A stretch of 35,424 nucleotides of DNA from Saccoglossus kowalevskii (lineage: Eukaryota > Hemichordata > Enteropneusta > Harrimaniidae): assembly GCF_000003605.2 (NCBI RefSeq), contig NW_003143807.1, positions 4,252 through 39,675 of the forward strand, written 5' to 3'. Of the stretch, positions 2,873 through 31,636 are shown in pieces (the stretch's first letter is position 1; each line of letters opens with the position of its first letter). A program made the translations under genes and the position numbers. The notes beneath the pieces were generated by a model. The model saw nothing but the letters and a program-made list of their open reading frames with translations. It ran no database searches and was not told the origin of the DNA.

Positions 2873-5800
2873 ATGATCTCTTTCAAATACGTTGTTTTTC
2901 TTTCGTGCTGTATATCAGTGCAGTGTGACGGTAAGTATAATTCACTCTCGCGTGTAGTAAGAACTACATACATTTTGCAAAAAATTGCTGCAATCCTTTA
3001 AAAAAATAGTACTACTACATCAACCTTACCAAGTGACTCGGTCACAAATTCTGGTCGAGATTTAGTTCTTACAAAATTGTCCACTCATATATTTATGTTA
3101 CATCTTACATGCTAAAACTAGAATAACAATTGTCGATACCGCCGCGACTTCTGACACACCATCATGACAGATTGCATTTAAATTTCATTTATTGAAATAA
3201 TAATGAACGACTATTTAATATCTTCTAGAATCCTCGCGTTATGACCAGCTGACGGATGCCAAGCAAGTAAAAGAAGCTCTGGTTGATGGATACCCAGTCA
3301 AATTTTTTGTCGATTTTGAGAAATGTGAAACGACGAAAATACCTATTGCAATTCCCGAGGTGGACCTGCAGGTAGGTGGAATTGGTCAACAGCAAATCGC
3401 CGATAAATCATGCGGAATGGTGTAAAATATTATTTCTTCTGAAGAAATTATTCATTTTCATTTTCATGGTAGAGCTATAATTTTATTCAAAAAAATATAA
3501 TTATTGTTTTCACTCTTACAGCCACCTTCACAGTACGGCTCGATTATCACGGAATTCCGCGCGACACAAGACGTAACTGGGGAACCAGTCGACATGCGAT
3601 TCACTACAACAAATATCATGCAATTTCCTGGCGTATTAGGTAATTATTGATATCACAATTTATACCAAATATGTAAAAATATGTAACACTACTTCAAAAA
3701 CTGTGGATGTTATTTTGCACATTGGTGTGTAGTATGAACCAACGATATTCTCGATAAATTAACGGTTAGACAACACACTGAGATAACAGTGCTACCCCTG
3801 CAATTGGTCCACTTAAATACTGAATGGTGACATTGTAAGCCTGTTTTCAGATGTTGTCCTGGGACGTCGACTTTCAAACGATCCGCATCAAGGGTACACG
3901 TGATATAGTTAATTGCTTTGTTAAATGTTCACCATTGTCTTATATGTTATTATTTCAGAGCATATATACGTGCACACCGAGGTTGTGCTATACCCAACTG
4001 GCAACGTCACCGTCAATACCCATTATATCCAACGTAAGGGACTCGTCAATGCTGGAACATCTGAGAACGACTGTCTGCTGAATGACGGTACCAACGACGA
4101 GGGCGCCTTCTTTTACAAGTCGACTTTGTATGAACCTGTTGCTATGACAACCTATGATGAAATCGAGTCAGCGCTGGTTGATGGATACAGTGTACGGTAT
4201 GGTGTGGTGTTCACGCGTTGTGGGGATTTTGGTGGTAGCTCAGATATGTTGGGTGCAGGGGACATGCCACAATATTACATTACAAGAGGTTAGTGTACTC
4301 GTTTTGAAACACGATCATGGATTCGATCGCTTAGGGACAATCCAGGCATATTTTGTTTTTGATTGTTATTGTTTGTGGGAAGTTATTCTAAAACATAAAT
4401 CCTATATGACTTGGTCTTCCAACACATCAGAATATGTGGGCAAACTCAAAACATCCACTGAGGAGACACTCCGGGTCTGTATAAAGGCCTGCAACCGCAT
4501 TTGGGCGAAGATAACTGTATTTTGGTTGTATTTGTTAGCCAATTCAGACAAAATATTAATGTAGACAAATGTTATTACAGAAACATTTTCCCTTCTTTCC
4601 TTCGCGATGCTTTTCACCACCGGACTTTCTCATCTAAATTTGCCTGCGCCTTTTTCTTATATACTTCAATATTTCTGGAAATGAACCCTAATTTTGAAGC
4701 CAACAAACAAAATTTGAGTCAATTTTCAGTTCTTACTGAAAATATTGTCTATTTTGGTCCCACTCTCTGAAAGAAAGTGCAGACTTTAAGCGGGATTATT
4801 TTGTGAATGTGTTATGAAAGGAGGGAATTAGTGAGGAAAACGTTAAGTCCTGATAACTCACTACTATCGCCATACTATATGTTGTTTACTAGGTGAGCAA
4901 ATTTCCACTGCTACTAGAAGGTTTGCCGCCAATCCAACTTTAAATGGTGAATTTGTATTAGACACATTCAGAGTAGACATCTTCAAAAATGCTACAGTGA
5001 AACTGTCAGTGGCGTCCTTAGATTTTGATGATTTCTCGAGTGTCAGGGATGAAGAGGTGCTGTGCAGCCTCGAAGACCCAGCTAGTGATCCACCAGCCTC
5101 GATATTCAAACTTGTTCCACGCGTTGATGAGCAGTCCACAGCTCCTGGTATATTGGTCACATTTTCTTTTATTCAATTTTAATTACAATACACTTTGTAA
5201 ATCTTTGCAGGGATATGATTCAAAATGGCTTTCTCGTTTGTCTAACTGTGTCATTCTGAACTAAATACGTTATATGACGTTTCCAAATGTTAACTATGCA
5301 GAACAAAAACAAAAACTCTAACTTATGAAAAGTCATAATCACATATAGTTATTGTAGCTGACAATGTTTTGTTACGTGTATACAATCGCTAAGACGTCTA
5401 TCAAACTATAAAATCAGGTGTTTTTGTCAAAAGGTACAGGAACTGATGCTAAAACAGATGCATTGGCGATACTGGTGACTTTGAATGCCTCGATGTCAAT
5501 AACATAATTACACAATTACTCCTTTTATATGATAGTTATTGTCAAAACATTTGACGTCCCTGCCTATTCTACATTCCTTTCGGTCCATAATTCCACACGA
5601 ATTAGATCATATACTGACCATATGATGTGTGTCACTAAGTTCCCCTTAGTTTACGTAATTAGTAAATTTTGATTAGGCATGTTACTGTATCCCTCAAAGA
5701 TAAATTGTGTATTTATATATTGTTCTACCTAAATAATACATAAATAATAGAGGTATCAACAAGTGTATTCATTTTGATCTATATTATATAACACACGCGG

Positions 5801-7367
5801 TATTTTTATTCTGACATAGACTCACCGTACCTTAGTCAGTTGGTGACTTCGACGCAAATTGGGGAAGCATTGAGTGAAGGTTATCCGATGCAGTTCTTTG
5901 TCAATTTTGAAAATTGTGATAGGGATTTGGTAGTTACACCACCGGAGATAAGCTTGGAGGTGAGTATGAGCACGAATCTTCATGACCGGAAGCTCGCCTA
6001 ATTGTAATTACCATTCTCGTTCCAAATGTCTTTATAGCACACTGAGATGTAATATATCGCACACCATGAGTTCATACAGTTCACATTGAAATGCCATTCT
6101 CGATTATGATATATTTGATTTGTGGGAATATACTTCTACTTCTGTATAGGAACCAACGGACTTTGGAACAATTATAGATGAATTCCGTGGTACCCGAGAC
6201 GTCACGGGAATGGCGGTACAGCTACAATTCACTGCAACAAAAGTCGCTAAATTCAGAGGCGTTGATGGTATGTATGCTTTTCTTAAATTAAATAATACAA
6301 GTTATTAGGATCAAGCTTTCAATTTACACAATTAAAACAATTGCCCAAGTCAAAAATACTATTTCATTGTCTACTGAAGATAAAATAAAACTAGTTGGTT
6401 TGCATTATAGACGTACAATTACATTCCTATATTTCCCATAAACTTACAATAATATGAATTTAAATATATATTCAATTGTTTCTCCACAGACCCCGTGATC
6501 GTTCATGTTAGTGTGGTGACCAACCCATCAGGAGCAGTGAGCGTAGCGGTCCATTATATTTCACAGGCCAACTATACATCGTTCGGAGTGTCCAACAACA
6601 TTTGCCAACTGAATGATGGAACGAGCGGTGGTGGTGGTGCTTTCTTCTATAGGTCGACTCTGTACGAGCCTGAGCCGTTGCAATCATTCAAAAATATACA
6701 GACAGCTGTGACTGACCAATATAATGTCCGTTACGGTGGTTCGTTTAGTCGATGCGATGAGGTGTTTAGTGGTGCTGAAACCCTTAGCTCAGGATTCATG
6801 AAAGTGTTCTATATTCTCAAAGGTAAGTGCAATATATTGTTTAGCGTTATATAGATGGGAAATATGCGCGGAAAACAAGAATAAGAACAACAATAATACT
6901 TCTACTATAATTATAATTTACCCTGCTCTAAAATAAACAGATTCATCGACTAACTATAAACATGTTTCTGTTTTTCAGACCAAAGGATCACTGCATCAAT
7001 CAACAAGCTGTATCAGAATCCATATTACAATGGTGGCTACGTACAGGACGTATTCCGTGGTGATATATTCAGCAATGACACCATGCATGCCTCACTACAA
7101 ACTTTAGACATTGACAACTTTTTTCAACGTATCACTGATGTGAATGTAGAATGTCCCATCAACGACCCGCCTAACGATCCACCCACAAAAATATTTCAAA
7201 TGGTCCCCCGTAAAAACGCGCTGCAGACAACTGCCGGCGCTGTGACTGTGACTGTGACTGAGACAGCCGGAACAACAAAGCAGCCCAAAACTGAAACATC
7301 TCGGAGTTCTTTGACGAAGTCATCTTTCATAGTCACATCCATTGTTTTGTTAGTATTCTTTTTCTAA
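2873..7367 (+). CDS. Secreted, probably GPI-anchored protein with four tandem VirK-like domains
   Basis: Nine exons join in frame to 627 aa: 2873-2930, 3229-3371, 3522-3639, 3959-4288, 4893-5147, 5820-5959, 6150-6267, 6490-6822, 6979-7367. All introns are GT-AG. Exon 1 encodes a signal peptide (MISFKYVVFLSCCISVQC). Four related domains follow at about residues 24-161, 172-290, 305-435 and 445-560. Each opens with a pattern such as ALVDGYPVKFFVDFEKC and carries a second cysteine near its end, suggesting one disulfide per domain. The pattern Y-x-x-L...AL-x-x-G-x-x-V...C followed by beta-strand repeats resembles Pfam VirK (PF06903), known from bacteria and some animals; I judge this by eye. Exons 2-5 and 6-9 are duplicated cassettes. 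The tail is Thr-rich (TVTVTVTETAGTT) and ends in a hydrophobic stretch (SFIVTSIVLLVFFF) typical of GPI attachment. The gene model is strong, the family name moderate, and the biochemical role unknown. Confidence 0.82.
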
Positions 7368-13600: not shown

Positions 13601-14280
13601 CACAAATATTTACGGTGAAAGAACCGATCCCTGGTTCCTTCATTCACATCACAGCATGATTTTTTTGTAAATGTTATTTTGTTACTCGAGTTAATAATAA
13701 CTGCACTGAATCTCGGTAATCTTATAGATATGGTTCAGATTGAGTCAATAAGTTCATGTGGTTAAAATGTGGCCTCATATATATGCAATGCTTGCTAAAA
13801 ATATTTATAAAAGCGTTCGTTGCCAAATGCTGAACAAGAAAATACAAGCTTACTATTTAGTAAAAAAACGATATACGCTTTATGTGGGTAGCACAAAGCG
13901 CACCAAAACGAATATAATTTTATTTTTCCATTCAGCTGTTTGAAAATGTTTGAATGGGACCGTGCACGTGGTTAGGTGTGAATTGAAATAAGCAATCATG
14001 TGCAAGCGTATTAACTATAAAAACGATTTGACAGAAAGAGCATAACGAATTCACAAAATTGTCACAATATCACAAGTAAATAGTGCATGTGTATTGGTAT
14101 AAATGCTAAGTTCCCAGTAACACCATTCTAAATAGAATTTTGTATTTGTCGAATAAATACTATATTTTATCATCTAGATGAGCATATGTCCCAGATCGAA
14201 GTTACAATGGGTCAAACAATATAAACAGTTACATGAAATGTGTATGTTTCTTTATTTCACCAGTTCCAGTGATCGGATTG
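10684..14280. other. Spacer upstream of the GalNAc-transferase gene
   Basis: No coding exon is supported. It contains a short CA-rich tract near 11088-11104 and many A/T runs. A 5' non-coding exon of the transferase gene could lie here: a pyrimidine-rich stretch ending in CACCAG at 14258-14263, just before the first ATGs of that gene, looks like a splice acceptor. I could not fix the matching donor. Confidence 0.4.
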
Positions 14281-15897
14281 ATGTACAAGAACGCCATGCG
14301 GATGAATACATTTAGAGTACATCTGTGGGTGACATGGTCTTTGGTAATTGTTGTTTCTGTGACTTTGATTCTGATATCGACGTGGTTATCAGAGAAGTCA
14401 GGTCATCTCTCACGTGACCCCGTCGCTCATCATCAGGACGTACATATCAACATGGACAGACGGGACATGAACGTTCGTCTCTTCTGTCAACAAATATGGA
14501 GCAGTCACAAACATGTAAATGTAAACAATGTTGCAACATCCAATACAAAAAGTTCGTGTTCGTGCGGCAACGATTCATTTACGATTGCGAACCAACCAGT
14601 GTTGCCGTGGCAACGAAAGGCATACGAATTGTGGGAGAATGAATATAGAGAGACGGAGGAACCAATCGTGTTCTGTCCCGCCCTGTCACCTTTTGGATAC
14701 ATAGGAGGCGGGATTACAGTGGAACCAGGAAAGTATGCGAACATCCGGGGACTGTATATACACCCGACGGCATTAACATGTTTCCATGGCAACTATGACA
14801 GTGACACTGTTTTACTGACAATCACTTGTAGTCGTGGCGTTGGTACCATGTTCGTTTCATCATCTCTACAGTACTCAAAATTTCTGTTCATTAGTGGAAA
14901 CAACACGAATCAACTACTTGTAATAACCAGTTTCCATGGCAACCATGAACTAATTAATAGTACCAACGAGTTCAACGTCTTACTGAACAATATTTTCTAT
15001 CAAAATGTATATTACGATATTTTCAGACGTGATTTGATTCGAATAACGCTTAAGAATATAACGGTGGAAATCAATGTTTTGATCAGAAGGCAACCTCTGC
15101 CTCGTCTCTATGACGTAAGAGATAATAAGGATATATCGTCCATGGTAACCATAGTTACCAAGACGTTTGAACGCTACAAAGCTGTCAATAATCTCATTCG
15201 CAGCATTAGAGTGTACTATCCCAATATCACCATAGTGATCGCCGATGACTCCGAATTTCCAAAACACATCCATGGTCAAAAAATTAAACAATTCGTAATG
15301 CCATTTGCAGAGGGGTGGTTTGCTGGTAGGAATCTGGCATTAAGCCAAGTTCGCACCAAATACTTTCTGTGGGTAGATGACGACTTCGAGTTCACCGATG
15401 GAACCAATTTGGAACTTTTTGTGGAGAAGCTGGACGACAAAAATGAGAAACTCGACATCGTCGCCGGAATTTTCGAAAAATCTCACGGACAAATTTCTGT
15501 CGATTCTTATTTCCAAATTTTCGATATTTCAAAAAGTGAAAACTTCGGGAGTTGCCTTGTTCGCAAAAGAGGCGCACATAGAAAACTTTCTTATAAAAAA
15601 TTTCCGCAATGTTACATGACCGACGTTGTGCTCAATTTTTTCATGGGTAAGACACAGTCTGTGAGAAAAATCGGGTTTGATCCCGAATTTCAGCGAGTTG
15701 CGCATTCCGAGTTTTTTATTGACGCTTTGGGTGAGCTACGCATAGCAGTTTGCTTAGACGTGAGTATCAAACATAAACCCGTGAAAACATCTAAGTATAA
15801 TTTGTACAGATCACGAGATATAGACCCACAGGACAAATACAGAAATATACAACATGTACTTTTTAAGAACAATCTGCAGTGTTATAAACTGTATTAG
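14281..15897 (+). CDS. Beta-1,4-N-acetylgalactosaminyltransferase, B4GALNT1 (GM2/GD2-synthase) type
   Basis: One uninterrupted frame of 538 aa encodes a type II Golgi enzyme predicted to move GalNAc from UDP-GalNAc to a galactose/sialyl-galactose acceptor on lipid or protein. After a short cytoplasmic tail a membrane anchor is visible at about residues 17-35 (VTWSLVIVVSVTLILIS), followed by a stem. The catalytic part starts near residue 287 (MVTIVTKTFERY) and contains VIADDSE, the conserved PFAEGWFAGRNLALSQV, the metal-binding motif WVDDDF (Asp at 366-368) and RVAHSEFFIDALG. All are hallmarks of CAZy GT12. Length matches human B4GALNT1 (about 533 aa). The frame is open upstream to 14233; I start at 14281 because the preceding bases look like a splice acceptor and the resulting tail is normal for the class. 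A Met at 14296 is also possible. The absence of coding introns is notable. The acceptor cannot be read from sequence. Confidence 0.9.
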   Translation: MYKNAMRMNTFRVHLWVTWSLVIVVSVTLILISTWLSEKSGHLSRDPVAHHQDVHINMDRRDMNVRLFCQQIWSSHKHVNVNNVATSNTKSSCSCGNDSFTIANQPVLPWQRKAYELWENEYRETEEPIVFCPALSPFGYIGGGITVEPGKYANIRGLYIHPTALTCFHGNYDSDTVLLTITCSRGVGTMFVSSSLQYSKFLFISGNNTNQLLVITSFHGNHELINSTNEFNVLLNNIFYQNVYYDIFRRDLIRITLKNITVEINVLIRRQPLPRLYDVRDNKDISSMVTIVTKTFERYKAVNNLIRSIRVYYPNITIVIADDSEFPKHIHGQKIKQFVMPFAEGWFAGRNLALSQVRTKYFLWVDDDFEFTDGTNLELFVEKLDDKNEKLDIVAGIFEKSHGQISVDSYFQIFDISKSENFGSCLVRKRGAHRKLSYKKFPQCYMTDVVLNFFMGKTQSVRKIGFDPEFQRVAHSEFFIDALGELRIAVCLDVSIKHKPVKTSKYNLYRSRDIDPQDKYRNIQHVLFKNNLQCYKLY

Positions 15898-20700: not shown

Positions 20701-23700
20701 AGATTTTGACTGGAAACTTAAGGTACACAATATCAAATACTGTAAAATACTTTATTTTCTCTGGAATTAATTTTCACTGAAAAGACTTTGTATGGAATTT
20801 ATTTTCACTTATTTTTGATGAATTGAATGTAAAATATATGGAAAAAAGGTATATTTGCTGGATTTTTATTTTCACTGAATCATTCCTTCAGCGAAAATAG
20901 CAAAAATTAATTCTAAGCGAAAATAAAGTATTTTACAGTAGTGTGTTTCGATTAACATCATTAAAGCCTTAGGTAAAAAAAAAAAGTTTAGCTTCTTGTT
21001 CGAAGGGAAAATTAAAAAATGTTATGTAAGATTTGAAGTATTAATATCCAGTTCCAGTTTCAATACATGTATTGAATATTAAACATATCTGTCTCACAAG
21101 ACATGGAATATATGCATGCTCCATATTTCCTTATCTTATAATTTTGGGATACATATGCTCATCTGTTTGTTAAACAGTTGATTTCAAGATGGCTGACTGG
21201 TGGCTATTTTAGTGCTCAAATACAATCAAAATAAAATTCTGATTTCGGTCATGCATTAACAGGTTTAGTTCTAACTTGGTACGTACATTGAGCATCATAG
21301 AACCTTTATCAAACAGTCAGCTGGCACACACGTGATAATAAAGTAAATGCGATATTTACTATATGGGGGCCGCCATCTTGAATGCGGCATAAAACTAAAT
21401 AAGAGACAAGTTGTGAAACACGTTTTTCAGATTCCTAAAAATCAGGACAAAAATGCCAATCTTTCACAGAAATACGATAGGTAATATTGAGCCAACCGAT
21501 AACAAAATTCAGTCGAATTCGTCGTTTTTGTGTGGAAAAATCCCTTAAAATACAAACACCTAATTACACGAAGAACATAGAACATTGAAACCAACAATTT
21601 TCATTCCAACTCAGCAGCCAATCAGCGACGGTCTTACAGTTAGATGACAAATTTGGTTTCACAACTTGTCTCTTATTTAGTTTTATGCCGTATTCAAGAT
21701 GGTGGCCCCCATATAGTAAATTTATTTTATTATCTCGAGTGCGCCAGCTGACTGTGCTTTATCACTGTACAAATCTGATTCAAATTGGCTGACTGTCAGC
21801 CATTTGGTTTAAGAATTGATGTCCATATCTTGAATATGCATTGATTGATTGTGATCAACTTTTACAGCTTAATTTGCATATTAAGTATATTCTGCAATTC
21901 ATCAGCGCCACCAAGTGGGGGAGATAGGGTCCATACCAGGGTGTGGAGTTTTTGATAATTCTAAGTTAAAGTGGAGCATTCTATGGCTTCCTTGGGATCA
22001 AAATTACTATCAGACAGGTCACAGTTGAAGACTGTGACCACATATGACCCCTGGTCAATCAGATTTTTATGGTTTTCCAGAGGATCTGCTTCCAAAGGTA
22101 AGGGGACACATGGCCATGGCATGAGGGCTCTGCGCCCCTGTTCCCTTGTTTAAAAAATCCCTGTCAGTATTCATTTCAGTTTTGTTTGCTATTGCACAAC
22201 ATGGACTGTGTTACATGTATGTCAATGAGCTCTAATAATCCTCGGCTTACAGTGGTGATTATATGATTGTGTAATTTTAGCTTGTGATGTCCAGTGATAA
22301 AATAGCATCAGTACAAGAGCCACTGGTGTCAGTTGATTTAGACTTACAGGAAGAGAAAGGACAGAAAGTAGTGTCACTTGAAATGAACCAAACTGAGCTG
22401 AAAAAAATGATCACTTCATTGGAAGCAGCAAATAAGGTTAGTGTTTATAAGTAAGGTATGTTGGAGTTTATAACAGTGTTTTTGATTGGCTACACAACCA
22501 TAAGATATATTTTCCAACCAATCAGTGAAATGATTGCTTTCCTCAGATGGCTTAATTAATCATCTGATGGGAAATACTGTTCCAGTCATATTATATTATT
22601 CAAAATTTGTAATTTTGTAACTGTAAACAATCTGAGGCCTAATCTGAGCATTGAACGCTTCACCCATCATCACTCTGCAGTAGGAGTATATATAAAATGG
22701 TTATAGTAGCGTTGTGTTCCATGATCAACTTGTTCAGATAACCAGTTCTTATAGCAAGATGAGTTGAAAACTTGCAAACCACATGATATCACTTTTTCCA
22801 TGGATACATCCACAATTTAAATTTTCATAATAATACGTGTTTATTAAATTATATACAAATAGGTTACATGTATTTTGTTGTGTGTTCCAAATTTTAGTTA
22901 GAGGTTATAAACGGCATACCGCTTATACCCTTATTATAATACGACAACGTTGAATATATAATGGAAATAAGGCATCTTTCCGAAACGAAGTGTGGGGAGC
23001 GATGAATAACCACATTCTGGGGCCTCGTCATACACTCTTTCAATAGAAATCACTCCTAGACACGTTCGCACAGGCATGTAATTCCAAGAGAAAACGATAA
23101 AACAGATTATTATAAAATTGCAAATGTTCAAGTTTATTACCTAAAATACATCATCAATAAATAGAAAAGGTTTATACAAATATAAAACAGGACAAATATG
23201 AATCGACATTATAAATATCGCGGATTAATACATTAACATTTGTTAAGAGTGGTAAATTTGAACATGGTGGTTTGAAATTTGTCAAGTTGTCGTTTTCAAG
23301 GATTTTAGTTTGGTGTTGGAGAAATATAATTGTTAGTATACACATATACAGAGCCTTCGATATTGCAGTTTTTGAACAGGTTTTCTGTGGCGACTGAGCT
23401 TGAGCATACCCTTTCACTTGTGGAGATAATTCTCTGACACTGTACTTGAGCCATGCCCGATGTTGACGGCCAAACGACGCTGGAACTGGGGGCCATCGGA
23501 AGGTAATTGTTACCATGCTCATCGACGGTAGGAACACCGACTTTTGACATTAAAATGTCACTACACTGACGTTTTTGTTCACCAGACCTGTCGCGACAGT
23601 AACTCCTGATACTCCCTTCATTCCAATGGCCACTTAAATTCATGATTATCCATGTTGGTATTCCAGCGTCGTTCAATGATTTTATAGTGGTTGCTCTCAC

Positions 23701-25169
23701 ACAGTGGTTAGTGTACAGCATGCTCAACTCTGGGGCCCACTGATATTTTTTTTATCATTTCCCCCAAAGTATTGTGACCCAAAGGAGCGTTTGTATAACA
23801 AGTTGTTTTCCTTCCTGGAAAGTTACTAGGCCGCTGGAAAAAAGCATTATTGCTTGGGTGAAGCTTACTAGTATAATTTAGAATGGCCGTAACAGGACAA
23901 AGTGGGAAGTCTGTTTTGTACATCTGTTTCTCAGATTCAAAGTCATCCTTCAAATCCCCAGGATGGTTTTTGGTTGCTTCCAAATAGGCCAAAGTGATAT
24001 AATCCCGTCCCCTGTCATCTTTCTTTAAAACAAAAGTCTTTGTGTAAATCCCGAAGACCCTCCCGTCTCCTTCGGCAAAAGAAAAACTCTACATAAAACC
24101 ACACCAAACGTAAAAGGGACACCGGGTTACGGTCGGACAGTGTCCGGCTGGTAAACATCTTACTCATGTCTGCCGCACTGATAACCGTTTTGTGTTGGAT
24201 TTTATCTTTCCCTTCCCGCTTCAAACTTTTCACTTTCCCTATAAATACATTATTGGCAGTTTGGAATTCCCGAGTGTTGATAATGTTAACGGGGCAATTG
24301 AATGGAACATTGGTTATGTGGCGATGTATTCTTTCATGTCTCTAGCCCTGACCTCGGCATAAAAATGCTTCAATATTTTTGTCAGCTCTTGCATTTCCAC
24401 CATTTCGAAGGCTGGGTCGATTTTCCGTTCAGAACACCACACTATACAAAAAAAAACATAATTTTAGTACGGAAATTGGGTCATCATGGGGGTCAAACGT
24501 TCAACGCATTGTTTACAAACAATGAAAATGGCGGCATTTGGCGGTACAAACTATAGTTACGATATGTTATTTTTTTTTAATTTTGACTTTTATCACACTT
24601 ACATTTGAGTAATTTCACACCCCATTTTGTGGAGGTGTTAGTATTCACTTCATTTTTCTTTGCTGCCAAGTTGTCGACCATTTCTTCAGAAAATTCTGGG
24701 AATCTGTAGCATCAATTTCATCCAGCTGGTCCCATTTGAAATTAAGATCAAAATTGATCTGAGGCTCGTCGTCTGACATAATTACTATGTTCTGAAAATG
24801 CCGCTAGTGACTTGCAGACGACAATATTTATCATATTTCGATCCAGTTTATGTTTTATTAATTATTCATCAAACAGGGCCAGATATGAACCCTGGCTTCA
24901 GCCAATCAGATGGCTAGATTCACACTGGTCATATTATAATATTAAATAGTTTGACCATCTGACTTCATTTTACTTAGCACATAATACAAAATTACTGCAA
25001 GTTGCATGACTGTGAACCCAATTAAAACTCATGGTAGTATAGTGTACAGAAATGTATTTCTACTAACTTGCTGTTAAATCGATGATACACATTATAATGT
25101 CTCTGTACATGTTTTTATAATCACTTCATGTTTCTATTTTCACAGGCTGTTCTACAATTGAAGTCATAG
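17740..25169 (+). CDS. COMMD8: COMM domain-containing protein 8
   Basis: Five exons join in frame to 184 aa: 17740-17805, 19126-19281, 20570-20722, 22281-22436, 25146-25169. All introns are GT-AG and phase 0. The product is a subunit of the COMMD ring in the Commander/CCC complex, which acts with CCDC22/CCDC93 and retriever in endosomal recycling and modulates NF-kB and cullin ligases. The start is set by the COMMD8 pattern: CPAELISS, then FIHQVIDGVCG and QDYSKVW in exon 2, and SAQ-like ISQAQMTDFDWKLK in exon 3. The COMM domain (about residues 119-184) continues with LVMSSDKIASVQEPLV, a beta segment, and SLEAANK-AVLQLK at the C-terminus. Length and most motifs match human COMMD8 (183 aa). The last exon has only seven sense codons and lies 2.7 kb beyond exon 4 because intron 4 holds a Crypton remnant. 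The ATGGCGG start context resembles a YY1 site. Confidence 0.95.
18069..18084. repeat. Poly-T tract in COMMD8 intron 1
   Basis: An unbroken T run of about 16 bases lies in intron 1. It is a simple repeat with no evidence that it is a retroelement tail. Confidence 0.7.
20336..20546. mobile_element. TA-flanked MITE, CTGTAAAA family, copy 2, in COMMD8 intron 2
   Basis: The left end TA-TTGTAAAA...TTTTCACTGGG is inverted at the right as CCCAGTGAATAATTAATCC-TTTTACAG-TA. The 211-bp element shares its right half, including TTTTACATATTCAC and the terminal GTGAATAATTAAT, with copy 4 at 27824-27970. It ends 23 bases before COMMD8 exon 3, so the exon's branch point and polypyrimidine region lie at or inside its right arm. 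Confidence 0.8.
20738..20940. mobile_element. TA-flanked MITE, CTGTAAAA family, copy 3, in COMMD8 intron 3
   Basis: The left end TACTGTAAAATACTTTATTTTC is exactly inverted at the right end (GAAAATAAAGTATTTTACAGTA). Inside, TTAATTTTCACTG on the left and a related inverted AATTAATTCTAAGCG on the right extend the hairpin. The 203-bp element begins 15 bases after COMMD8 exon 3. The long near-perfect terminal repeats suggest it is younger than copy 2. Confidence 0.85.
21312..21756. mobile_element. Foldback MITE with about 110-bp terminal inverted repeats and 8-bp target duplication
   Basis: The element is bounded by CTTTATCA at 21304-21311 and again at 21757-21764, an 8-bp target-site duplication. 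The left arm runs AACAGTCAGCTGGC... to GACAAGTTGTGAAA. The right arm is its inverse, from TTTCACAACTTGTC to GCCAGCTGACTGTG. There is no coding capacity. An 8-bp duplication with CAG-containing ends suggests mobilisation by a hAT-type (or other 8-bp-TSD) transposase supplied in trans; that class is inferred. Both arms carry a YY1-like sequence (GCCGCCATCTTG left, CAAGATGGTGGC right). It lies in COMMD8 intron 3. A truncated relative lies at 10406-10683. Confidence 0.88.
23305..24779 (-). pseudogene. Degenerate Crypton tyrosine recombinase (DUF3504-type) inside COMMD8 intron 4
   Basis: Read on the minus strand from an ATG at 24779, disconnected frames add up to a Crypton-like recombinase. An acidic N-terminus (MSDDEPQINFDLNFKWDQLD) is followed in another frame by KWGVKLL, a possible GTAAG splice donor, LTKILKHFYAEVRARDMKEY, then REFQTANNVFIGKVK, SRTLSDRNPVSLLRLVWF, REGLRDL, TKNHPGD, FPLCPVTAILNYTSKLHP, FFQRP and APLGHNTLGEMIKKIS. 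The C-terminal catalytic block has HCVR (His codon 23704-23706), GHWN (His near 23628) and a Tyr at 23599-23601. With the Arg of REGLR these are the R...HxxR...H...Y residues of tyrosine recombinases. Frame changes near 24705, 24035 and 23730, plus an apparent deletion near 24318, show that it is dead. It is antisense to COMMD8. The true ends of the element are not visible, as Cryptons lack inverted repeats. Confidence 0.85.
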
Positions 25170-27369: not shown

Positions 27370-27381
27370 CAACATGGCGGT
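27370..27381 (+). promoter_or_regulatory. TISU-like / YY1-like element over the DSTYK-like start codon
   Basis: CAACATGGCGGT matches 11 of 12 positions of the TISU consensus SAASATGGCGGC, which couples YY1-driven transcription start to initiation on very short 5' UTRs. It supports 27374 as the start codon. Confidence 0.5.
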
Positions 27382-30300
27382 ACCACGGGAGAAAATAATT
27401 ACAGGTATGTAATGTTCAAACTCAGACAACCAACCCATATAGTCTACATGAACGCATATACAATATGTCTGCTCTAAGGTTTATGTCATTAGTAAACACT
27501 ACGACAACAGCATGTAATACCCAATTTTGTATATTTCATATATTCAACATTAAACATGTCCCCCTTTTCGAGGTATTGTACGTGTCATAGGAAAGGGGGG
27601 AGTGACTATGCAAGGACAGATCCTATATATTGCTGTGATATAACCGTTACCACATCAACTTAAATCAAAGAGACTAGAAAATACATAATATATCGAAAAT
27701 ATTTTCTCGTGTCTTTGCTTAAATCAACGTTTAATTTGAATTCATAGACAATTTCTGCTGCCTCAGAGTTCGGGGCTCGTTCCAGTCCAATAATAGAAAT
27801 TAACAAAAAATAAGGAAGAATACTACTGTAAAAACATTTATTTTCACTAATATTTAATTTCACTGTCATGAGTTATTTTACATATTCACGTGGATTTAAT
27901 TCAGCGGATTTTACTTATCGGCGAAAATGTCAAAATTAAAAACCCGTGAATAATTAATGCTTTTACAGTAGCGGATTCAAAATGAAATGCTACATAATGA
28001 ACTCGTATGCAAACCTAAACCTATTTTTTTTTTTGGCTTTATAATATTCGTAGTGTACGAGTTCGATTTAATTTTCATTGTATGGATTTATTATTCTGAT
28101 AGGCTATACAAAATCTTATGTTTCACGATATCTACCTACCAGTGTATTGTATCATATCAATTTAATTCTTACATTTGTGTTCCTTTCTAACATAGCACCC
28201 AAGGCCCACACTGATAGTCCATGCCCATCGGAATCGTTAGCCTTATTCCATAAAGAATTCACAGATTTTAAAGAATGGAAGCAGACATTGAAATCGGTGC
28301 ACGATTCCAGTAGGCGCTGCTTTGACAAACTGGTAGCAACATTACCCAACGCGGAGGAAGTACAAGGCACACTTATATCAGAGGAGGATTGGACTGCTCT
28401 GAGTCGCGTCTTGGAAAAGGACCCCACGGTACTTCTTCTTGGTTTGACGAACTGCGGTAAAAGCTCACTTGCTAATGAACTATTGGGAGGGAGAATTTTG
28501 CCAACAGCAGAAATACCCTGCACTTCACGCGTGGTACTTCTTGAGTACAGTGAAAATGAATACATTCAACTTCGAAACAGCGACAAAACAGTGACAAGAA
28601 AAACATCTCTTGATGGGGGAAAAAAACGTGTACCGAGAGATTTCATTGTTGTTTCTGAGGACGAACGAGCGCAAAGAGAAAAAGTCAAAACTGTGGTAGA
28701 AGTGGGTCTGAATAACGCCCTTCTGCAGAGTGGTGTAAAGCTGGTTGATGCTCCTGGAATGAGTGAAAACACAACACTCACAGAAATAGTGAGAGACTGT
28801 GTCAAAGGAGTATTGCAGCTCATTATCTATGTGCTGGATGGTAATAATGGCTTTCGACTAGAGGTAAGTAAATCATTTAATCAATTAATTAACTAGCTTA
28901 AAATATTGTTGAATATGTCAAAAGCTGTTTGGAGGGTCATGTATGCGACAAGGCCAAAATAAATAAATATGGTTTACTTGAGGATGCTCACTCACTGTTT
29001 CTAATTACTTGCATTCATATGTATATTTTCATGTTTTTAAAGTAATGGCGAAGTGAAATATTCATGGTCATAATATTTCTATGTTACTAGAAGACACTGT
29101 TTTGAATTAAAAATGCAAAATTAATAAATATAAGACTAATTAAACCTTTTTTCCTCTTGCCATAGGACCAGAGTGTATTGGGGTCCTTGTATGACATTGC
29201 CCCCGATCTCTCAATCTTCTATGTTTGTAACAAAATAGAAACGAACCTATCAGCGAGCAGAATGGACATGGCATCAGATGATGAAGACGAAGATGATGCA
29301 TCAGAAAACCCTGAAGAGAAGAAATTGCGCGTGTTTCAATCACTGGTGGATTATGGTTTCATAAATAGCAGAGAAAAGATGAAGGATTGTCGTTTCTTTC
29401 ATGGGATATCAACCAGAGAAATCAGTCGAGAAAGACGGCGTGGTGAGACTGGAAAGAATTACAGTAAAGCCTTTGATGTAATGAAGCAGGACTTTATGTT
29501 TTTTGCTGGTCAGATGTTACAGGGCCACATGTTACATGCCACTAACTCCCTCCTACAAGCACAGATACACTGTTTTGAATTCTTTATCTTAGATGCCCTA
29601 CGTCAAGGTATCCCAAATGTCACAAAAGCAGAGGAGCTTGGGCTTATGATTGAAGAACTACGAAACAATAGGGCACGTCTACACAAAAATGCCAGGTCGG
29701 CGCTTGACGCAAGAAAGGAGCGCATTGGAAAAGTAATTAAGAATGCAATTGAGGGGAAACAAGACGAAATTCTACTGGCAGTTCAAAACATGAAGTACAG
29801 TCCGGTTAGAGTTGGGGAAACCGTTAATAGGAACGAAATGGTTGAACAGTTACAAAATCAAGTGCAACGCCTGGTAGTGATGAAGATTACACAAGCTGTC
29901 AAAGAAAGTTTGCAGCCTGAAATCGAGGCCCTGGTGCAAGAAATGACTAAAGCAGGTGATCAACAACTGGAGGTGTTGAACCAAACAGCATGGGAAGGTT
30001 TCCGCAACATATTGACTAGTTTGACTTTCTCTTTATCAGTACCCAAGTTCTCAGGATTATTAAATTTAACTAACATATCGTGGAGCGTTGCCCGTCAGTG
30101 GATGGTTAATGATCTTCCAAGTAAGATTTCTGCAAAGTGGAAAGGAGCAGTAGTCGATACCAAATGGAGGTATAAGATTGCCAAGGAAACAATGGAACGC
30201 TTGAATTGTAAGGAGATGACAGAAATTGTATGCAAAGAAATTAGGTCGAAGATAGACAAGTTTTTCAATGATCTTCACAAAGAAATCTGTCGCATTGAAA

Positions 30301-31636
30301 CACTGAATAAAGCCAGCAAGATGCAGGAGGATAAGTCACGCAAAGTTGCTGCTGATATTGCAAAGGAGCTATGCCAAACTATCTGCAAAACGGAAGCTCT
30401 TATATACAGTTGCCGGCATGGTCGCCTGGTTTTAGAACCTGGTAAAATGCTTGGGCAAGGTTCTAGGAACCGTGTCTTTCTCATGAAAAAATGGCCATCC
30501 CTAGAACATAAGAGTGTTTCTGCAAGGATATCAAAAAATGGAGAAGCCATTGGAGAAGATGTTTCCATGCTGATAAAAATAAACAGGTAATCTTATAGTG
30601 GATGTTAATGTTTTTATTAGGAAACCATTATTATGTTCTGGTGGTCCAATGGTATTGATTGTGAAATTCTGATACCATGATTTCATATATTCGCAGAAGT
30701 TTACCATATCACCGAGGTATACTACCAGTGTTAGGTGTTGCTTTAGGGTCAGTAGACGGACTCACATCCACCGTTGTGATCACACCGAAAATAAAGTGGA
30801 ATCTGTGGACGACAATGGCTGACAGTAGCCTTGCTAAACAGTCTCTCTCAAAACGGCTTCAGATGGGTGAACAAATAGCAGATGGATGCGAGTTTCTTTT
30901 GAAACATGGATTCCCGATATCTGACCTCCGTGTGACAAACATACTTGTAAGTATAAGACACGTACGTGTTCATTTTCAAATGAAAACAATGTAAAACATA
31001 GTGTTCATATATTCTTCCACTCATTTAATATAATTTAATTTGTAGGTGTCCCCCAAGGAGCCGAACAGAAAAAACTGGACTCTTATAATCAATATGTTGA
31101 AACCTAGGGATGACAGTGTACTTTATCCTGATGATAAATTACCCTTTCACATCGCACCAGAACGCTATGGATTTCCCAAGCGCAGTCGACGACGCAGCAG
31201 TGTTACAGACCACAAAGACATACAGCTAAATGGTCGACACCTTCAACGCAGTGCAAGTACAGACAGCCAATTAAGTGAACGGCGTGCTCGACGTAGTTTT
31301 GTTGATGCTGACTGTGGAGATGACCCAGCTAACGTGTATGCGTTTGGAATTTTGTTATGGTTGCTAGTACGTGGCACTTTTGTGCGGCCTTCCTATGCAG
31401 AAAACACGGACATAGATGCCATGAAAACAGCTGTCTGCATTGAGCAAAAACGTCCCGAGCTTGACTGGCTTGAGGCCAAGAGCGATAATTTAAATCATAA
31501 AGGCCTAGCTGATTTGCTTAAAATGTGTTGGTCTGAAAATTCAAGCGAACGGCCCTCGTGGACTGAGGTATCTTACCGTTTAGCGACAGTCAGAAATTCA
31601 ATTTCCAGAAGGTCGACAAGAGTAACATCAGTATAG
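27374..31636 (+). CDS. DSTYK-like protein: dynamin-like GTPase fused to a pseudokinase
   Basis: Five exons join in frame to 986 aa: 27374-27404, 28196-28863, 29166-30586, 30697-30946, 31046-31636. A GTPase domain occupies about residues 80-300: P-loop GLTNCGKS (93-100), LPTAEIPCTSR as a candidate switch I, DAPG (195-198) and NKIE (255-258). This arrangement recalls bacterial dynamin-like proteins and mitofusins. An acidic stretch (DDEDEDD) and a long helical region follow; the block around AKWKGAVVDTKWRYKIAKE aligns by eye with the middle of vertebrate DSTYK (929 aa). The C-terminal kinase-like domain (about 655-975) has LGQGSRNRVF, APE (827-829), VYAFGILLW and CW...RPSW. However, the VAIK lysine is missing (VSARI), HRD reads ISD (781-783) and DFG reads INM (805-807). 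An Arg/Ser-rich insert fills about 834-876. Phosphotransfer is unlikely; GTP binding is likely. This could be the sole DSTYK orthologue or a divergent paralogue, so no symbol is assigned. Confidence 0.9.
27824..27970. mobile_element. TA-flanked MITE, CTGTAAAA family, copy 4, in intron 1 of the DSTYK-like gene
   Basis: TA-CTGTAAAAACATTTATTTTC at the left and GTGAATAATTAATGCTTTTACAG-TA at the right bound a 147-bp element without coding capacity. Its right half closely follows copy 2 (20336-20546), including TTTTACATATTCAC and AAAATTAAAA, so the two share a recent source. Confidence 0.8.

What the first reader, a model, noticed from the sequence alone, without database searches (positions are those of the whole stretch)
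28196..31636. DSTYK-like protein with an intact GTPase and a dead kinase, the reverse of vertebrate DSTYK
Seen: canonical P-loop GLTNCGKS, DAPG and NKIE in the N-terminal half. In the kinase fold the VAIK lysine is gone, HRD has become ISD, DFG has become INM, and the aspartate before the VYAFG helix is Asn. Known, from memory: vertebrate DSTYK keeps a functional HRD/DLG kinase and has lost the GKS of its P-loop region. Inference: the ancestor was a GTPase-kinase fusion, and different lineages retained different halves. This one would act as a dynamin-like GTPase with the pseudokinase as a regulatory or scaffold module.
Basis: partly seen in the sequence, partly recalled or inferred. Interest (0 to 1): 0.78.

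Follow-up and report, generated by a model that had tools for sequence, protein, structure and literature searches.

The report
GTPase with dead kinase, DSTYK-like
An unnamed, probably invertebrate, genome carries a cluster of genes related to the human kinase DSTYK whose front half is a dynamin-like GTPase; in this gene the GTPase looks largely intact and the kinase looks dead, while two neighbouring copies look alive in both halves.

Summary
A spliced 975-codon frame encodes a dynamin-type GTPase, a stalk and a degenerate kinase, colinear with vertebrate DSTYK (a sequence recalled from memory and checked against published residues). Corrections: G4 is NKIE, not NKxD; the HRD Asp is kept (ISD); the DFG Asp column is best read as Asn. 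The evolutionary inference changes. This is not the DSTYK orthologue: another contig holds DSTYK-like exons, three of them 71-89% identical to the recalled sequence. The gene is one of eight modelled paralogues on its contig. Two (B, E) keep G1-G4 and the kinase Lys/Asp/Asp triad, so bifunctional-looking GTPase-kinases exist. Five (A, this gene; C, F, G, H) lack the DFG Asp and separate from B, D, E in a tree built without the kinase. F and G show dN/dS of about 0.24 in the GTPase exon and 0.35 in the kinase. A profile of the array matches the recalled DSTYK N-terminus as a degenerate GTPase. Most likely: a dynamin-like GTPase with a pseudokinase module, from an ancestor with both activities.

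The parts
27374..27404 (+). candidate first coding exon (MAVPREKIIT)
   Evidence: Kozak-like ATG context, strong donor and matching phase 1; second of 8 candidates by donor score; no transcript, inferred
28196..28863 (+). exon with GTPase G1 (28441-28467), G2 and G3 (28747-28758)
   Evidence: Dynamin_N and BDLP matches
29166..30586 (+). exon with G4 NKIE (29229-29240), helical stalk and kinase N-lobe (glycine loop 30453-30479, VSAR 30516-30527)
30697..30946 (+). exon with the kinase middle part, catalytic loop ISDLRVTN (ISD 30917-30925)
31046..31636 (+). exon with degenerate DFG (INM, Asn at 31088-31090), APE, RRxS-rich insert, NVYAFG helix, C-lobe and stop

Best explanation
The window gene is a DSTYK-family paralogue (not the orthologue) in a cluster of at least eight genes. 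It encodes a dynamin-like GTPase joined through a stalk to a kinase fold that is probably catalytically dead. Shown by sequence: the architecture, the motif states, the cluster, the tree split, and the bifunctional-looking relatives B and E. Inferred: GTP binding and GTP-driven self-assembly are the working activity; the pseudokinase serves as a regulatory or docking module, perhaps in mixed assemblies with kinase-live paralogues; the family arose from a GTPase-kinase in which the pseudokinase group of the cluster lost the DFG Asp and, separately, the DSTYK line decayed its GTPase.
For: Dynamin_N E=1.5e-16 and BDLP E=5.4e-11. Colinear homology with recalled DSTYK, E=2e-27; local alignment scores 112, 167 and 108 for GTPase, stalk and kinase against maxima of 55, 64 and 49 in 200 shuffles each. 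Array profile against the recalled DSTYK N-terminus: 41.9 bits for the GTPase part, 106.3 for the stalk; best of 1000 shuffles 5.2 bits. G1-G4 strictly canonical in 5 of 8 paralogues (B, D, E, F, G), nearly so in H (SKID); kinase Lys, HRD Asp and DFG Asp together in 2 of 8 (B, E). Three introns at phases 0, 2, 0 in 8 of 8 models. Tree without the kinase: A,C,F,G,H against B,D,E 100/99; with recalled DSTYK counted on the B,D,E side 79/83, full length 97/97. F versus G: GTPase exon dN 0.222, dS 0.909; kinase dN 0.043, dS 0.122. DSTYK orthologue with VHRD, TDLG and DVYAFG elsewhere in the genome.
Against: The window gene's own G4 has Glu for Asp, which may weaken guanine recognition; F and G are cleaner live-GTPase/dead-kinase examples. 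Its catalytic Asp and loop Asn survive, so residual or unusual phosphotransfer is not excluded. Sister gene C has lost G3 and altered G1 (GKK), so the GTPase is not kept throughout. No selection test for the window gene itself (A-C synonymous sites saturated). The kinase tree supports the split only weakly (47/63, 68/87). No transcripts, no usable structure, no biochemistry. The root of the tree is unknown, so one loss or two cannot be settled. The DSTYK comparison rests on a recalled sequence.
Confidence: 0.62

Rival explanations
1. Both halves are on the way out: the gene is a decaying duplicate, and the function lies in kinase-live paralogues and the DSTYK orthologue.
For: G4 Asp to Glu; sister C has lost G3; kinase stem branches of A/C and F/G are longer than the N-terminal ones (about 2.1 against 0.84, and 4.1 against 1.2).
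Against: 975 codons open with sound splice sites; G1-G3 present; pseudokinase paralogues F/G under purifying selection in both halves; the H branch is no longer in the kinase than in the N-terminal tree (0.86 against 1.08).
Confidence: 0.15
2. The kinase is unconventional rather than dead: the kept HRD Asp, loop Asn and glycine loop support weak or non-canonical catalysis, with the GTPase as its switch.
For: ISD keeps Asp and DLRVTN keeps Asn; some proteins classed as pseudokinases, such as CASK and HER3, are listed as active (PMC4718504, passages).
Against: VAIK Lys, alpha-C Glu and DFG Asp all absent; Pkinase score 23.8 bits, under its cut-off of 31.7, against 126-153 for B, D, E and recalled DSTYK.
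Confidence: 0.1
3. The cluster is an innate-immunity module: dynamin-like effectors or sensors whose kinase-dead members act as regulators or decoys of kinase-live members.
For: Clustered, diverging copies with a pattern like gene conversion between F and G (dS 0.12-0.25 in the 3' half against 0.9-1.2 in the 5' half); human DSTYK acts on STING at late endosomes and needs its kinase for that (PMC11933320, passages).
Against: No expression, infection or interaction data; clustering and conversion are common in other families.
Confidence: 0.13

Closest known systems
DSTYK (dusty kinase, RIPK5/SgK496)
   Same: Colinear GTPase-like region, stalk and kinase; shared kinase features (VYAFGIL, HxAPE); two exon borders in the orthologue's kinase fall, by eye, where the array's do
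   Different: Vertebrate DSTYK (recalled) has a live kinase and no G1-G4; the window gene is the reverse and is a paralogue
Bacterial dynamin-like protein BDLP and mitofusin Fzo1
   Same: GTPase domain similarity over residues 34-311 (BDLP) and 70-226 (Fzo1), PCT switch I, DxPG
   Different: They carry no kinase fold (recalled); no membrane segment was looked for here
LRRK2 / ROCO proteins
   Same: GTPase and kinase in one chain (Roc/COR-kinase architecture in PMC9573974, passages)
   Different: Roc-COR is a Ras-like GTPase with COR (recalled); no Roc, COR, LRR or WD40 hit here
MLKL and other pseudokinases
   Same: Altered glycine loop, HRD and DFG in a kinase fold (PMC4718504, passages)
   Different: MLKL's partner is a four-helix bundle (recalled), not a dynamin-like GTPase

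Membership tests
DSTYK family | full-length colinear homology including the stalk | tested here: met
   against a recalled sequence; orthologue exons in the genome match that recalled sequence at 71, 75 and 89% (three exons), 54% (last exon); a fifth exon was aligned only together with intron
DSTYK family | active kinase triad Lys/Asp/Asp | tested here: not met
   VSAR, ISD (Asp kept), INM
DSTYK orthologue | closest gene to DSTYK in its genome | tested here: not met
   the closest exons lie on contig C1729
Dynamin superfamily GTPase | Dynamin_N domain above its curated cut-off | tested here: met
   61.4 bits, cut-off 27
Dynamin superfamily GTPase | G1-G4 motifs | tested here: inconclusive
   G1-G3 met; G4 NKIE has Glu for Asp
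Dynamin superfamily GTPase | GTP hydrolysis stimulated by self-assembly | not testable with these tools
   no bench data
Dynamin superfamily GTPase | fold match by predicted structure | tested here: inconclusive
   single-sequence model of exon 1 only, pLDDT 34; no fold search was run on it
Pseudokinase | lacks at least one of VAIK Lys, HRD Asp, DFG Asp | tested here: met
   Lys and DFG Asp absent
ROCO/LRRK | Roc-COR tandem | tested here: not met
   no such Pfam hit at E up to 1

The most novel reading that the evidence does not exclude
Paralogues B and E are true bifunctional enzymes, a dynamin-type GTPase and a DSTYK-type kinase in one chain, in which GTP-driven assembly switches the kinase on; the kinase-dead members, including the window gene, co-assemble with them as regulators. 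Vertebrate DSTYK would then be a relic whose unexplained N-terminal half is a pseudoGTPase of dynamin type that still provides the assembly scaffold.
Probability: 0.27. Interest if true: 0.82.

Novelty: new variant of a known kind. Interest (0 to 1): 0.62.

Why it matters
DSTYK is linked to kidney and urinary tract malformation and spastic paraplegia (PMC8490499, start of abstract in the listing) and to STING signalling (PMC11933320, passages), yet most of what lies before its kinase domain (residues 652-906) is drawn as low complexity or without known function (PMC8490499, figure legend). These genes supply a missing intermediate: they link that region to dynamin-like GTPases, which Pfam does not detect in the recalled human sequence. 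They also give a natural set of motif states (both present, GTPase only, both impaired, kinase only) for asking what each half does.

Tried and rejected
Gene-model artefact: not favoured; the window frame is open with GT..AG sites and 8 of 8 models fit the same intron phases, though I chose splice sites by homology and, for gene H, to fit the phase. A hidden DFG exon in the 99-base third intron: none seen by eye. ROCO origin: not supported. Relatives in public collections: viral-contig scans found none, genome contigs none; plasmids gave 6 records with matches confined to the GTPase part, 5 annotated as dynamin family and 1 without annotation. Structure prediction of exon 1 alone: useless. The N-terminus of the DSTYK orthologue could not be read: the fetched DNA just upstream of its exons reads N, and neither the recalled sequence nor gene B's N-terminal part matched any such exon in the genome, so whether it has lost its GTPase is unknown. 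Gene H's second splice junction was wrong and was corrected; searches used the earlier form (two residues longer at the kinase N-lobe); trees were rebuilt. Pfam was not run on gene G. No description of this domain pairing was seen in listings for DSTYK with GTPase (20 of 39 papers listed), dynamin (7 of 7), P-loop/pseudokinase/pseudoGTPase/RIPK5 (20 of 177), AlphaFold (2 of 2), or Dynamin_N/Pkinase/domain combination (20 of 58); broader listings showed none either. These are titles and abstract starts of open-licence papers only, and the 2006 Dusty kinase paper is not held, so absence from print is not shown.

Full report
What is there. The window lies in an unnamed 572-Mb genome (contig C3472:4252-39675). 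At 28196-31636 (+) four exons with GT..AG introns join into 975 codons without a stop. Upstream, 27374-27404 is a plausible first coding exon, second of 8 candidates by donor score (inferred). The protein has a Dynamin_N domain (E=1.5e-16), a stalk region without a significant Pfam hit, and a kinase domain (PK_Tyr_Ser-Thr E=1.9e-9; Pkinase 23.8 bits, under its cut-off of 31.7). In the PDB the N-terminal part is nearest to BDLP (E=5.4e-11), another GTP-binding protein (2.1e-6) and Fzo1 (about 1e-4); the kinase part to the C-lobe of RIPK3 (5e-8).

Is it DSTYK-like? No tool here holds animal protein records beyond the PDB, so I compared it with a human DSTYK sequence recalled from memory. It is 929 residues long and carries the residues that papers place in DSTYK: L91 (PMC8490499, passages), L581 (PMC12432288, passages), K681 and D777 (PMC11933320, passages); three further variants (R29, D200, S843) are themselves recalled. 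The genome gives an independent check: exons on contig C1729 match it at 71, 75 and 89%, and 54% in the last one; a fifth exon was aligned only together with intron, 40%. Window protein against recalled DSTYK: E=2e-27, 21% identity over 860 columns, colinear. GTPase, stalk and kinase parts score 112, 167 and 108 against shuffled maxima of 55, 64 and 49, 200 shuffles each; a mismatched control (window GTPase against recalled stalk) scores 39, within its shuffles (mean 37, maximum 60).

Motifs. GTPase: GLTNCGKSS, PCT, DAPG and NKIE. The recalled vertebrate sequence has GQDCNVKCQ, SCK, VAPC and PKLG in the same columns. Kinase: Lys absent (VSAR), ISD with the catalytic Asp and loop Asn kept, INM where DFG should be, APE kept, NVYAFG for DVYAFG. 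Pfam mirrors this: recalled human DSTYK has Pkinase at 126 bits and no family in its first 321 residues; the window protein has 61.4 bits for Dynamin_N and 23.8 for Pkinase. The DFG columns were scattered by the aligner in the pseudokinase rows; the reading Asp to Asn in A, C, F, G and H is by eye.

The surroundings change the story. A search of the genome with the window protein returned 22 matches, all on this contig; a search with gene B's N-terminal part returned 13, again all on this contig. Both are capped first looks, so lower bounds. Eight gene models were built, in contig coordinates: A (window gene, 32449-35887, +), B (53551-58350, -), C (58608-61677, +), D (64362-67636, +), E (68634-72056, +), F (119997-123502, -), G (126460-129857, -), H (130439-136417, +). 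Splice sites were chosen by homology; the eight models have no internal stops and fit three introns at phases 0, 2, 0, gene H's second junction having been picked to fit. Pairwise identities run from 22 to 54% within the array, except F-G at 78% (earlier form of H).

Motif states over all 8. Strictly canonical G1-G4: B, D, E, F, G (5 of 8); H has SKID in G4; A has NKIE; C has an altered G1 (GKK) and no G3. Kinase Lys: B, E, H (3 of 8); HRD Asp: A, B, C, D, E, H (6 of 8); DFG Asp: B, D, E (3 of 8). All three kinase residues: B and E (2 of 8). D has Arg for Lys with the rest intact; B has PPE for APE. Canonical GTPase with a DFG-dead kinase: F and G (2 of 8), H nearly. Dynamin_N scores: A 61, B 78, C 33, D 93, E 86, F 66, H 69 bits; Pkinase: A 24, B 153, C 22, D 128, E 128, F 19, H 70 (G not run).

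Trees. With the kinase left out (633 columns), A, C, F, G, H and B, D, E separate with 100/99 support; with recalled DSTYK counted the split has 79/83 (same). The full-length tree places recalled DSTYK with B, D, E at 97/97. The kinase tree agrees only weakly: 47/63 (61/88 when DSTYK is not counted) and 68/87. The root is not known, so one loss of the DFG Asp is the simplest reading and two are possible. Kinase branches are longer than N-terminal ones on the A/C stem (2.1 against 0.84) and the F/G stem (4.1 against 1.2), not in B, D, E or H; recalled DSTYK shows the reverse (N-terminal 2.4 against about 0.8 including the stem shared with the orthologue). Lengths from separate trees are only roughly comparable.

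Constraint. Of five pairs computed (F-G, D-E, B-D, B-E, A-C), synonymous sites are saturated in three and dS is 1.8 in D-E. F-G gives dN/dS of about 0.24 in the GTPase exon, 0.22 and 0.16 in two parts of the second exon and 0.35 in the kinase region; dS falls from 0.9-1.2 to 0.12-0.25 towards the 3' end, as gene conversion would give. So two kinase-dead members are maintained; this was not shown for the window gene itself.

The orthologue. The recalled DSTYK finds, on another contig, exons with an intact kinase (CALK, VHRDIKLKN, TDLG, HMAPE, DVYAFG). The window gene is therefore a paralogue. The orthologue's N-terminal exons were not found; the fetched DNA just upstream reads N.

Vertebrate N-terminus. 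A profile of the eight array N-termini matches the recalled DSTYK N-terminus with 41.9 bits over the GTPase part and 106.3 over the stalk (full sequence 150.3); the best of 1000 shuffles reached 5.2. This supports a degenerate dynamin-like GTPase domain in DSTYK, pending a check with a database copy.

How it works (inference). A dynamin-like GTPase whose stalk allows assembly, with the pseudokinase as a regulatory or docking module. Human DSTYK works at late endosomes; its kinase is needed for STING signalling, while kinase-dead mutants still colocalise with LAMP1 (PMC11933320, passages). Zebrafish dstyk mutants have fragmented notochord vacuoles; wild-type Dstyk rescues, and a kinase-dead form was also tested, with an outcome not in the passage seen (PMC7012607, passages). 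A membrane-trafficking role for the array is plausible but untested.

Verdict.

Noticed in passing
31160-31325: Insert of about 45 residues between APE and the VYAFG helix, rich in RRxS-type sites (RRRSS, QRSAS, RRSF); short or not apparent at this place in the other cluster members by eye.
   Followed up: partly
31600-31636: C-terminus ends TSV, which resembles a class I PDZ-binding end (recalled motif).
   Followed up: no
14182-15897: Single open frame on the + strand with a Glycos_transf_2 domain (E=1.6e-11); looks like a B4GALNT-type enzyme (from memory).
   Followed up: partly
23172-24088: Minus-strand frames, one with a weak DUF3504 match (E=0.0055, under cut-off); looks like a broken Crypton-type tyrosine recombinase (from memory).
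   Followed up: partly
3925-6854: Two frames (3925-4293, 6453-6854) share a repeated module (LNDGT..GAFFY.STLYEP) by eye; no Pfam match at E up to 0.01.
   Followed up: no
L010, contig C3472:56675-57217 (-): Reverse-transcriptase-like frame inside the first modelled intron of paralogue B, by eye a LINE fragment.
   Followed up: no
L037, paralogues F and G between exons 3 and 4: A frame shared by both genes (SYITA.IPRIDES.YF) lies in the presumed intron; intron or extra exon not settled.
   Followed up: no
L011, paralogue D (C3472:64362-67636): Kinase with HRD and ADMG intact but Arg in place of the VAIK Lys (AVR), possibly an early step of kinase loss.
   Followed up: partly
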